Shown: piece after piece, positions 23,150 through 27,095 of the stretch
How the letters are laid out: every line of letters begins with the position of its first letter
How positions within the stretch are numbered: the first letter of the stretch is position 1
Assembly: GCA_018715365.1 (NCBI GenBank)
Contig: DVLU01000004.1
Span: 1 to 56,420, forward strand
Direction of reading: 5' to 3'
Source: Candidatus Ornithomonoglobus intestinigallinarum
GTDB lineage: Bacteria > Bacillota > Clostridia > UBA1381
DNA length: 56,420 nucleotides
Made by a program: the position numbers and the translations under genes
The notes under the pieces: model-generated
Database searches by the model: none
The model's input: the letters and a program-made list of their open reading frames with translations, nothing else
What the model was told of the DNA's origin: nothing

Positions 23150-23200
23150 AGCAGCAGTCCCGCACGGGGGGGGGTACGGGGGGCGGAGCCCCCCGGGATC
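23150..23200 (-). repeat. Palindrome family A variant
   Basis: CCCGCACGGGGGGGGTACGGGGGGCGGAGCCCCCCGGG overlaps the 3' end of the lipoprotein gene's stop region and may serve as its terminator. Confidence 0.7.
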
Positions 23201-23522
23201 AATTGTTTTCGCCGTCCCCCACAATGTCGTTGACGGCGTCGCCGACATCCTGCGCCGCCTCACCGACGCCGTCGCCCAAATCCTCGGCGGCGTCGCCCAT
23301 TTCCTCCATTGCGCCTTCCGCACCCTCCGCGGCGGGATCGGAATTCGAATCGGCCGCCGGAGTGGGCGATGCGCTGTCGCTTACGGCAGTAGGCTCGGGC
23401 GACGGCGTTGATGTTGTGCTCGTCTTGTTCCCGCAGGCGCAAAGCATCGTGCAGCCGAGCGCCGCGATAATCAAAATTTTCGTATTTTTAATTTTCGTGT
23501 TTTTTATCATGGTTATAACCAT
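23199..23522 (-). CDS. Small acidic lipoprotein
   Basis: This 107-aa exported lipoprotein has a signal with lipobox LCAC (lipidated C30), a Thr/Ser/Pro-rich linker (about 33-62) and an acidic, Gly-spaced amphipathic tail with repeats such as EEMGDAAEDLGDGVGEAAQD. It would be tethered to the outer face of the membrane. Function is unknown. The start is uncertain: ATG at 23522 is 3 nt from AGGAG and ATG at 23510 is 15 nt from it. It reads divergently from the SLH protein. Confidence 0.78.
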   Translation of the reverse strand: MVITMIKNTKIKNTKILIIAALGCTMLCACGNKTSTTSTPSPEPTAVSDSASPTPAADSNSDPAAEGAEGAMEEMGDAAEDLGDGVGEAAQDVGDAVNDIVGDGENN

Positions 23523-23777
23523 TAACTCCTTTCAAACCAAATTGCACGCTTACAGTCATAGTATTGTCGTATTTTTGATTTTTAGTCGGTATGTTCATAA
23601 AAAGTTCAAAAATATTTTCCGAAAAAGCGGAACAAATTTTTAATATGCGCGTCTAATACACTGTTGACGGGCATTAAAGGCGCTGCCGGAGGGCGGCGCG
23701 TTAATACCGCAGGGTCACGGGTATACCGCGGATACCGTGTCATACATATAAAAAAACTATGTAGAGGAGAAAAAGTT

Positions 23778-25469
23778 ATGAAAAAGAAGATTTTATCGGT
23801 TATGATAGTATCGGCAATGCTTTTGTCATCAACAGCCGCATTTGCCGAAACAGCAGCCGTTGACACAACGGCGGACACAGTCGTTACGGAGCAGGTACAG
23901 GCAGAGGTACAGCCCGCGTTCGCAAGAATGGAGCTTACGGTCGTATCGAACGAGGACGGCGTTATTGAAACAACGGACGAAAACGGCGGAACTGTTTTCC
24001 TTAACACAAACAAGGCGCTTGTTTACGCCATAGACGGCACGGAGCTTACGGCCGGTGACGTTAAGGAGGGCGACGCAATATCGGTATTTATGAGAGCAAA
24101 CGAGCCCGCTCCGGCGATTTATCCGCCCGAGTACACACCGGCTGTTATAGTTGTAAACAGCGAGGAGGATTTGGCGGGCAGCGTTGCCGTTGCGCACTTC
24201 TCGAAAAACGAGGACGGTTCCGGTTACATAAATGACGAGGGCGACCTTGTTGTTCACGCTCCCGAGGATTACGAGGGAACGCTTGAAGGCGATTTTATAG
24301 TATTCTACACAATAACAACAATGAGCATCCCGCCGCAGGCCCCCGCAAATAAGGTAGTGGCTCTCGGTTCGGACGCGGCCGCAGACGATGCGAACGCGCC
24401 GGCAGAGGATACGGAAAACGACGAACAGGCAATCGAAAACCCGTTCGTTAAGTTTGAGGGCTCGAGCGTAGCGTCGGTTGAAAACGATGTTGTTGTGCTT
24501 GAGGACGCAGAGGGCAACCCCTCATCGCTAAACGCCGCTCAGGCGCTTATATACGACGTTGACGGCACAGAGCTTACGGCAGCAGACCTCAAAGAGGGCG
24601 ACAGCGTAACGTTCTACGTAAGAGCAAACCAGCCGACGATACTTATCTATCCGCCGGTATACACTCCTGCCGTTATCATAAGAAACGATGCGGAATATGC
24701 GGGCAGCGTTGACGTTTCGAAATACGTTCCCGCCGAAGGCGAAGGCTACATAAACGCAGAGGGCAGCCTTGTTATCCACATGCCCGAGGGCTTTGTTGAG
24801 AACAAGAAGCTTGACAATGATTACATCGTATTCTATTCGGTGACAACAAAGAGCCTTCCGCCGCAGACAACTCCCGATAAGCTCGTGCTTATAGAGGAGC
24901 CTGTTATAGAGAGCACATACGCGGACGTTGCCGATGACGCATGGTATGCCGAAAGCGTTGCGGACGTAACAAACAGCGGCCTCTTTAACGGTATATCGGA
25001 GGAGGAATTCGCTCCCGAGGAAAGCATGACAAGAGCTATGTTCGTTACGGTACTTGGCAGACTTGACGGCGTTGCCGTTAAGGACGCGTGTGTAACGGGC
25101 TTTGAGGATACACCGGGCGATCAGTATTATTCGTCATACGTTGCATGGGCAAACATGAACAACATAGTAAACGGCTATGAGGACGGCACATTCAGACCGG
25201 ACGAAACGGTTACACGTGAAGAAGCTATGCAGATAATCTTCAATTACTGCGAATACAAGGGCGTGGGCCCCGAGGGCGCATGGGCTGTTCTTGTTGACTA
25301 TGCGGACGCTGCCGAAATTTCGGAATATGCGAACGACGCAGCTATGTGGAACGTAATTCACGGTTATCTTCTTGAAGATGAAAACGGGAACATAAACCCC
25401 GACAAGACTGCAACAAGAGCGGAAATTGCATACGCAATGGACATTCTTGCAACGCAGCTCGGCAAATAA
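23778..25469 (+). CDS. S-layer homology (SLH) domain surface protein with duplicated module
   Basis: This 563-aa exported protein has a signal peptide ending near SSTAAFAE, two tandem modules of about 150 residues (about 45-190 and 220-365) sharing LTEL-type DGTELTA..KEGD, RAN(E/Q)P, IYPPxYTPAVI and FYxxTT(M/K)SxPPQ, and three C-terminal SLH repeats (about 375-563; FADV/YADVADDAWYAESV, YEDGTFRPDETVTREEAMQI, NPDKTATRAEIAYAM). SLH repeats anchor proteins to pyruvylated wall polymers. ATG at 23778 follows GAGGAG by 8 nt. The upstream 255 bases hold regulatory sequence that I cannot resolve. Confidence 0.9.
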   Translation: MKKKILSVMIVSAMLLSSTAAFAETAAVDTTADTVVTEQVQAEVQPAFARMELTVVSNEDGVIETTDENGGTVFLNTNKALVYAIDGTELTAGDVKEGDAISVFMRANEPAPAIYPPEYTPAVIVVNSEEDLAGSVAVAHFSKNEDGSGYINDEGDLVVHAPEDYEGTLEGDFIVFYTITTMSIPPQAPANKVVALGSDAAADDANAPAEDTENDEQAIENPFVKFEGSSVASVENDVVVLEDAEGNPSSLNAAQALIYDVDGTELTAADLKEGDSVTFYVRANQPTILIYPPVYTPAVIIRNDAEYAGSVDVSKYVPAEGEGYINAEGSLVIHMPEGFVENKKLDNDYIVFYSVTTKSLPPQTTPDKLVLIEEPVIESTYADVADDAWYAESVADVTNSGLFNGISEEEFAPEESMTRAMFVTVLGRLDGVAVKDACVTGFEDTPGDQYYSSYVAWANMNNIVNGYEDGTFRPDETVTREEAMQIIFNYCEYKGVGPEGAWAVLVDYADAAEISEYANDAAMWNVIHGYLLEDENGNINPDKTATRAEIAYAMDILATQLGK

Positions 25470-25755
25470 TCAGCCACTGACTTCCGTATGCGGGCGGGCA
25501 GCCGAAAGGCCGGCGCTCAGCAGCAGCCGCAGGGCGGGCGCGTTTACACAAAAAGCGGTATAGAAAACGCTTGCGTGCCCTGCGGGGAAACCCGGCGCCG
25601 GAGGTTCACTTGAAAGCTTATCCGACCCAATATAATTTGCGATGTATAGGAATCTTGACCTCCCCGAATTTCCGGCGGGCAAGAGCGCAGTCCGTATACG
25701 GAGTTTGCGGGCCGGAGCTATCCGGACAATGCTCCGGTAATAAAAACATCAAAAA
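25470..25755 (+). ncRNA. Candidate structured RNA between SLH gene and terminator
   Basis: The 286 bases hold many strong helices: CCGCAGGGC/GCCCTGCGG with inner GCGTTT/AAACGC, GCC-GAAA-GGC, GGG-GAAA-CCC, GGAGGT/ACCTCC, a long-range closing pair ACTTCCGTATGCG/CGTATACGGAGT, and CCGGAGC/GCTCCGG near the end, then the terminator at 25756. This density is not expected by chance or from repeats elsewhere in the window. I cannot match it to SRP RNA, tmRNA or RNase P. 6S-like or another clostridial structured RNA class is possible. The plus strand is favoured but not proven. Confidence 0.55.
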
Positions 25756-25785
25756 AACGCCCTGCTCCCGCAGCGGCGTTTTTTT
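25756..25785. terminator. Bidirectional terminator between the structured RNA and trhP
   Basis: AACGCC/GGCGTT with inner CTGC/GCAG, an A-run on the left and seven Ts on the right. It serves the rightward unit and the leftward trhP operon. Confidence 0.88.
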
Positions 25786-25811
25786 GGTGTTTTTTTGTAT
25801 TCTTTTTTTGC

Positions 25812-27041
25812 TTATTCGGGCTTTTTCTTTCTCAGCATATCGCCGCGCTTAACGGGCCTGTCCACCTTAAAGCGGACGATCATTTCGGGGTGGTTCGCAA
25901 CGTCTATGCTCTCCCCCTCCTCGTTTGTCATTTCGCCTATCACCTGCGTAAAATGCGGGCGCAGCGGACCCATGATCTCCGTTTCGTCGCCCTTAAAGAA
26001 GCGGTTGCGCTGCGTTACGGCCGCAACGCCCGTTTTTTCGTCGTAGTCAAGCACGATTCCTATAAGCTCGTAATCGCGGATATATGAGCTTGTTGTGTAA
26101 ACCTGCGATTCCGAGTCGGGCTTGTGATAATAAAAGCCGGTAGTATACGGCCGGTGGCTTACCTTGCAGAGCTCCTCAAGCTCGGCGGGATTGAAGCTGT
26201 AGTTTTCGGGATCGTCAAAATACCTGTCGATTTCGCGCCTGTATGCGCCTGTGACCGTTGCGGCGTAATATGCCGTTTTAACGCGCCCCTCTATTTTAAA
26301 GCTCGTTATCCCGCTTTGCACAAGCTCCGGGATATGCTCTATCATGCAGAGGTCCTTTGAATTGAATATAAAAGTGCCGCGGTCGTTTTCGAAAACGTCC
26401 ATGTACTGCCCCGGGCGCTTTTCCTCAACGAGGCTGTATTTCCAGCGGCAGGGGTGCGAGCACCGGCCGAGATTTGCATCGCGGCTTGTGAGATAATTCG
26501 AAAGCAGGCAGCGCCCCGAATACGATATGCACATCGCGCCGTGGACAAACGCTTCAAGCTCAAGCTCCGGCGGCGTGTTCCTGCGTATTTCCGCGATTTC
26601 CTTAAACGACATTTCGCGGGCGAGCACAACGCGCTTTGCGCCCATGCGGTGCCAGAACAATGCCGAACGGTAATTGGTGTTGTTTGCCTGTGTGCTTATG
26701 TGGACGGGAAGCTCCGGGGCAAGCGTGCGCGTTATGTCAAAAATGCCGGGGTCGGCGACAAGCACGGCGTCGAAGCCCATCGGGCGCATTTTTGCTATAA
26801 ATTTTTCGTATTCGTCAATATCGCTGTTATGCGGTATGATGTTTGCCGTGAGGTAAACCTTTTTGCCGCGCTCATGCGCAAAGCGGAGGCCCTCGGCGAT
26901 TTCATCGTCCGTGAAGTTTTCCGACGCCGTTCGGAGGCTGAACGCTTCGCCGCCTATATATACGGCGTCGGCGCCGTATTCTATGACGGTTTTGAGCTTT
27001 TCAAGACTGCCCCCCGGCGCAAGCAGCTCCGGTTTTTTCAT
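25812..27041 (-). CDS. trhP: Peptidase U32-family protein, tRNA uridine hydroxylation (TrhP)
   Basis: This 409-aa protein is of the U32 family, whose bacterial members TrhP/RlhA hydroxylate RNA bases with prephenate; TrhP makes ho5U at the tRNA wobble position. The start KKPELLAPGGSLEKLK, the QANNTN block, and the cysteine cluster CISYSGRCLLSNY...NLGRCSHPCRW (about 170-200), which binds an iron-sulfur cluster, are visible. It follows trmR, which methylates the same modification. B. subtilis has two U32 genes at this place; only one is seen here. ATG at 27041 is chosen although GGAGC is 14 nt away. Confidence 0.87.
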   Translation of the reverse strand: MKKPELLAPGGSLEKLKTVIEYGADAVYIGGEAFSLRTASENFTDDEIAEGLRFAHERGKKVYLTANIIPHNSDIDEYEKFIAKMRPMGFDAVLVADPGIFDITRTLAPELPVHISTQANNTNYRSALFWHRMGAKRVVLAREMSFKEIAEIRRNTPPELELEAFVHGAMCISYSGRCLLSNYLTSRDANLGRCSHPCRWKYSLVEEKRPGQYMDVFENDRGTFIFNSKDLCMIEHIPELVQSGITSFKIEGRVKTAYYAATVTGAYRREIDRYFDDPENYSFNPAELEELCKVSHRPYTTGFYYHKPDSESQVYTTSSYIRDYELIGIVLDYDEKTGVAAVTQRNRFFKGDETEIMGPLRPHFTQVIGEMTNEEGESIDVANHPEMIVRFKVDRPVKRGDMLRKKKPE

Positions 27042-27095
27042 AATTATGGCTGTTAGCTCCTTTCGCAAAACTATTCTCTCGGTAATTTCTTTATG

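What the first reader, a model, noticed from the sequence alone, without database searches (positions are those of the whole stretch)
25470..25785. Possible structured noncoding RNA downstream of the SLH gene
About 240-280 bases with many nested helices, two GAAA-capped hairpins, a long-range closing pair and a clean terminator lie between SLH and trhP. The sequence is not one of the window's repeats. It does not match the RNA classes that I can recall in detail.
Basis: inference. Interest (0 to 1): 0.6.

Follow-up and report, generated by a model that had tools for sequence, protein, structure and literature searches.

The report
Conserved structured RNA behind S-layer gene
Right after a gene for an S-layer-type surface protein, this Clostridia genome carries a roughly 260-base stretch that very probably folds into a specific RNA shape; the same RNA sits behind the same gene in one sister species, belongs to no catalogued RNA family, and has an unknown job.

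Summary
Window 25480-25740 (+), ending in an intrinsic terminator (25742-25794), folds unusually well (z -4.1 with terminator, -2.6 without). No Rfam family matches; RNase P and 6S RNA lie elsewhere in the genome. One homologue was found, in a same-genus species (G001, record CALXRY010000050.1), behind the orthologous SLH gene (76% aa identity). The 3' core is 87% identical, while fourfold-degenerate SLH sites are only 45% identical, so the element is under strong selection. Closing helix P1, hairpin P3 and helix P5 recur in the homologue with four two-sided compensatory and eight one-sided pair-keeping changes; the changes are not protein-like. Nothing was found in the other 93 genomes of the order, about 390 of the class, IMG/VR, phages or plasmids. 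Only 10 nt and no terminator separate the SLH stop from the RNA, so it is most likely a structured 3' UTR co-transcribed with SLH, perhaps released as a stable RNA. That function is inference: no expression data, two sequences. It is a new, narrowly distributed member of a known kind.

The parts
23778..25469 (+). SLH-domain surface protein gene (563 aa), presumed host transcript
   Evidence: ORF, PF00395 E 4e-25; ortholog 76% aa identity in G001
25480..25740 (+). structured RNA element (body)
   Evidence: z -2.6 alone and -4.1 with terminator; homologue L009:3222-3510
25480..25493 (+). P1, 5' strand (ACUUCCGUAUGCGG)
   Evidence: pairing probability about 1 for most pairs; 3 one-sided changes in the homologue, no broken pair
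25501..25510 (+). GAAA-capped hairpin 1 (lineage-specific)
   Evidence: GCCGAAAGGC; not in the homologue
25529..25583 (+). P3 hairpin (outer 25530-25536/25576-25582, inner 25540-25545/25565-25570)
   Evidence: fold z -2.85 here and -3.46 in the homologue; 4 two-sided compensatory changes
25546..25564 (+). P3 terminal loop with conserved AAAGCGGUAUAGA
   Evidence: 17 of 19 aligned loop bases identical, although its stem varies
25583..25594 (+). GAAA-capped hairpin 2 (lineage-specific)
   Evidence: CGGGGAAACCCG; replaced by a different, longer stretch in the homologue
25597..25676 (+). P5 domain: P5 25597-25606/25667-25676, inner helices 25610-25615/25653-25658 and 25617-25621/25646-25650, conserved UAUCCRACCC...AUGUAUAGG internal loop
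   Evidence: P5 probability about 0.75 in the homologue; in the window part of a structure 3.4 kcal/mol above the MFE; alifold finds P5
25658..25668 (+). invariant C-rich, anti-Shine-Dalgarno-like segment ACCUCCCCGAA
   Evidence: identical in both genomes apart from one inserted A at its 3' end; mostly accessible in the homologue, partly in the window
25692..25704 (+). P1, 3' strand (CCGUAUACGGAGU)
   Evidence: identical in both genomes
25712..25737 (+). 3' hairpin CCGGAGC/GCUCCGG
25742..25794 (.). intrinsic terminator, palindromic, probably bidirectional
25812..27068 (-). convergent U32 peptidase (trhP-like) gene; not linked to the RNA in the sister species
   Evidence: PF01136/PF16325; the sister species has a HydF-like GTPase gene there (name given from sequence by inspection)

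Best explanation
It is a structured RNA that forms the 3' UTR of the SLH-protein mRNA and ends at its intrinsic terminator. SHOWN computationally: a conserved, selected element on the + strand with helices P1, P3 and P5, linked to one SLH gene. INFERRED: it is transcribed by read-through from SLH, because there is no terminator and only 10-11 nt between the stop codon and P1. INFERRED: the P1-closed fold resists exonucleases, so the roughly 260-310-nt piece outlives or is cut from the mRNA and acts as a stable RNA whose invariant segments (the AAAGCGGUAUAGA loop, UAUCCRACCC/AUGUAUAGG, ACCUCCCC) contact a protein or target mRNAs, so that its dose follows expression of the surface protein.
For: Fold scores: window z -4.08, homologue z -7.25 with terminator and -5.33 without. 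Selection: core 25597-25711 is 98/112 identical against 45% at SLH fourfold sites and 48% at third positions. Pairing: 46 of 48 consensus pairs kept in both species, with 8 one-sided and 4 two-sided changes; RNAalifold on the sequence-only alignment z -2.75 on + against -1.34 on -. Linkage: same position 10-11 nt after the orthologous SLH stop although the 3' neighbour differs; the full-length SLH ortholog and the RNA are both missing from the third genus member G002, and two more distant SLH relatives (G005, G020) have no such RNA after the stop. Not coding: differences fall 5/5/4 over the codon positions of the one shared small frame, 7 of 9 changed codons nonsynonymous. Precedent: RsaC and RsaG are 3'-UTR-derived RNAs in Gram-positives made by RNase III or by exonuclease blockage (PMC9438474).
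Against: Only two sequences exist, so the covariation is thin, and the consensus helices were chosen from those same sequences, which flatters the pair counts; the stricter null that re-deals letters at the substituted sites is only weakly exceeded (1042 of 20000 reach the observed value). P5 is not in the window's own MFE. No expression data. No target or binding partner was found: pairing with the SLH 5' region is no better than with shuffled sequence. A promoter inside the SLH gene is not excluded.
Confidence: 0.5

Rival explanations
1. A free-standing small RNA gene with its own promoter inside the 3' end of the SLH coding sequence, overlapping but not depending on the SLH mRNA.
For: A promoter-like site TTGAGG-17-TATTAT lies at 25102-25130 and at the matching place in the homologue; [quoted passage not shown] ArgX in Lactococcus (PMC9438474).
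Against: The match is weak (9 of 12), is fixed by coding sequence (FEDTPGDQYY) and lies about 350 nt upstream; nothing better lies close to the RNA.
Confidence: 0.2
2. A purely cis-acting 3' UTR: it stabilises or regulates the SLH mRNA (exonuclease block, or binding of a protein to its own mRNA) with no separate RNA product.
For: Same cotranscription argument; S-layer-type transcripts are often abundant (general knowledge); the stable closing helix and 3' hairpin would hinder 3' exonucleases (inference).
Against: Plain end protection would not need sequence-level conservation of loops (P3 loop 17/19 identical, core 87%). No pairing to the SLH 5' region beyond chance.
Confidence: 0.2
3. A short protein-coding frame (25642-25740; MYRNLDLPEF..., 32 aa) or another coding or DNA-level constraint explains the conservation.
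For: The frame is open, with matching start and stop, in both species.
Against: Differences are spread 5/5/4 over codon positions with 7 of 9 changed codons nonsynonymous; no Shine-Dalgarno sequence before the ATG; conservation extends to the P1 5' strand and the P3 loop, outside the frame.
Confidence: 0.05
4. A chance fold of a G+C-rich intergenic spacer, conserved only because the two species are close.
For: The stretch is G+C-rich and the terminator supplies part of the z-score.
Against: Near-neutral sites of the neighbouring gene are only 45% identical against 87% in the core; the homologue has lower G+C yet folds with a better z; compensatory changes in P3.
Confidence: 0.05

Closest known systems
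RsaC (Staphylococcus aureus, 3' end of mntABC) and RsaG (3' end of uhpT)
   Same: Gram-positive RNAs carried at the 3' end of an mRNA; RsaC is long and confined to a few species (PMC9438474).
   Different: No sequence relation claimed or tested; their processing and targets are known experimentally, here neither is; the host gene is an SLH surface protein.
raiA RNA (Rfam RF03072)
   Same: Structured RNA of Clostridia, 209 model positions.
   Different: The covariance model gives no match in this genome or 20 relatives (control genomes also gave none) nor in the window at E up to 10.
RNase P RNA (RF00010) and 6S RNA (RF00013)
   Same: Similar size and a complex fold closed by a long-range helix (RNase P); long hairpin-like RNA (6S).
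   Different: Both are found elsewhere in this genome at high score, so this is neither.
Uncatalogued structured-RNA candidates of human microbiomes (PMC8040213)
   Same: Intergenic structured candidates outside Rfam.
   Different: Those models are 27-219 bp long; their tables could not be searched here, so overlap with part of this RNA is not excluded.

Membership tests
Structured 3'-UTR RNA (kind, not homology family) | lies directly behind a stop codon with no terminator in between and ends in an intrinsic terminator | tested here: met
   10 nt after the SLH stop, terminator only at 25742-25794; same layout in the homologue
Structured 3'-UTR RNA (kind, not homology family) | conserved secondary structure with compensatory changes | tested here: met
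   4 two-sided and 8 one-sided pair-keeping changes, but from two sequences only; alifold z -2.75
Structured 3'-UTR RNA (kind, not homology family) | transcribed together with, or processed from, the upstream mRNA | not testable with these tools
   no RNA data
3'-UTR-derived trans-acting sRNA | discrete stable RNA with target mRNAs | not testable with these tools
   only an anti-SD-like conserved segment at 25658-25668 as a hint
raiA RNA RF03072 | match to the family covariance model | tested here: not met
RNase P RF00010 / 6S RF00013 | the genome's copy is this locus | tested here: not met
   copies at G000:C98 and G000:C26
Any Rfam 15 family | score above gathering threshold | tested here: not met
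   only a tRNA in the whole window
Riboswitch / 5' leader | lies upstream of a co-directional gene | tested here: not met
   the downstream gene is convergent in both species

The most novel reading that the evidence does not exclude
A new family of about 300-nt structured RNA released from an S-layer-type mRNA, using its invariant loops to bind a dedicated protein or to regulate other envelope mRNAs, thereby coupling surface-layer production to other genes.
Probability: 0.25. Interest if true: 0.6.

Novelty: new member of a known kind. Interest (0 to 1): 0.4.

Why it matters
Large structured RNAs embedded in 3' UTRs of Gram-positive mRNAs are rarely described. This one is better conserved than synonymous sites of its host gene and keeps its helices by compensatory changes, so it is probably doing something; its strict linkage to one SLH gene gives a clear starting point for experiments. 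Its restriction to two species known only from metagenome-type assemblies limits its reach.

Tried and rejected
Rfam at gathering and permissive thresholds: only chance hits, mostly on the terminator. raiA, RNase P, 6S: rejected. Pattern scan of 84,980 GTDB genomes: six hits, one is the sister species' own contig; the other five have no surrounding similarity. Covariance and sequence models over the order and class: weak hits shown to be chance; the two best order-level hits lie inside or across protein genes. Phages, plasmids, IMG/VR: nothing. Pairing of conserved loops with the SLH 5' region: an 8-nt match UAUACCGC/GCGGUAUA exists in the window but not in the homologue, and overall pairing is not above shuffles. 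Small ORF: rejected. Alternative pairing GGAGGU/ACCUCC in the window: its register is not kept in the homologue (by inspection).

Full report
OBSERVATION. The stretch 25470-25785 begins directly after the stop codon (25467-25469) of a 563-aa SLH-domain protein gene and ends before a convergent U32-peptidase (trhP-like) gene. It folds with -134.1 kcal/mol, z -4.08, and no shuffle does as well; without the terminator the z-score is -2.61 on the + strand and -1.64 on the - strand. The sequence occurs once in the genome.

KNOWN FAMILIES. Rfam 15 gives no match at gathering scores in the whole window except one tRNA, and only chance-level matches, mostly to the terminator, at E up to 10. The genome's RNase P and 6S RNAs are elsewhere. 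raiA RNA is not detected.

HOMOLOGUE. It starts 11 nt behind the stop of the orthologous SLH gene (76% amino-acid identity), ends with its own terminator, and is followed by a convergent HydF-like GTPase gene instead of the U32 peptidase. The SLH 5' region is conserved too. The RNA thus goes with the SLH gene, not with the downstream gene. The third genus member (97% complete) lacks both the full-length SLH ortholog and the RNA, and two 34%-identical SLH relatives have no such RNA after the stop. The full-length sequence model finds only the window copy among 391 genomes of the class apart from one chance hit, and the core model adds only chance hits. Searches of about 85,000 species genomes by pattern, of IMG/VR, phages and plasmids found nothing else. 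Absence statements hold for these collections and sensitivities.

SELECTION. Fourfold-degenerate sites of the SLH pair are 45% identical and third positions 48%; the RNA core 25597-25711 is 98/112 (87%) identical and the P3 loop 17/19, whereas the P3 hairpin as a whole is 65% and the spacer regions 54-62%. This pattern, conserved loops on changing stems, is typical of functional RNA (general knowledge). The one small frame open in both species does not evolve like a protein: differences 5/5/4 by codon position, 7 of 9 changed codons nonsynonymous.

STRUCTURE. Six consensus helices (48 pairs) were compared: 46 pairs form in both species; 8 of these differ on one side (G-U being one of the two states, so they pair in both species only on the + strand, apart from one) and 4, all in P3, differ on both sides. 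P1 and P3 have pairing probabilities near 1 for most pairs in both species folded independently; P5 is at about 0.75 in the homologue, while in the window it belongs to a structure 3.4 kcal/mol above the optimum. RNAalifold on the plain MAFFT alignment, against column shuffles, gives z -2.75 on the + strand (1 of 100 shuffles as good) and -1.34 on the - strand. Caveats: two sequences only; the helices were partly chosen from the same sequences; the null that keeps the substituted sites and re-deals their letters is reached in 1042 of 20000 draws. The two GAAA hairpins are not conserved; the homologue has other sequence there.

MECHANISM. With 10-11 nt between stop and P1, no terminator in between and no convincing promoter nearby, read-through from SLH is the simplest source of the transcript (inference). 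Either the RNA stays as a structured 3' UTR or it is released, as RsaC and RsaG are in Staphylococcus (PMC9438474). The invariant, at least partly exposed segments (AAAGCGGUAUAGA, UAUCCRACCC/AUGUAUAGG, ACCUCCCCGAA) are the likely contact sites; the last resembles an anti-Shine-Dalgarno sequence, a lead only. Pairing with the SLH mRNA's own 5' region is not supported. I favour a co-transcribed 3'-UTR RNA that persists as a stable product (0.5), with an own-promoter sRNA (0.2) and a purely cis-acting element (0.2) as rivals.

VERDICT. It is a new, narrowly distributed structured RNA without an Rfam family, of a known kind, function unproven. Interest 0.4.

Noticed in passing
window 23524-23777: The intergenic region upstream of SLH (shared with a divergent small lipoprotein-like gene at 23199-23522, -) is conserved in the sister species with long near-identical blocks (e.g. 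TTACAGTCATAGTATT, AGTCGG..TGTTCATAAAAA), suggesting shared promoter or regulator sites.
   Followed up: partly
window 23722-23731 and 25555-25562: The P3 loop GCGGUAUA is perfectly complementary to UAUACCGC in the SLH 5' leader of the window; the match is not kept in the sister species.
   Followed up: yes
window 25642-25740: A 32-codon frame (MYRNLDLPEFPAGKSAVRIRSLRAGAIRTMLR) is open with matching ends in the sister species, but its substitutions are not protein-like.
   Followed up: yes
window 25742-25794: The terminator is a near-perfect palindrome with A- and T-runs on both sides and probably also ends the convergent U32-peptidase transcript; such palindromes make some of its weak BLAST hits in other genomes.
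   Followed up: no
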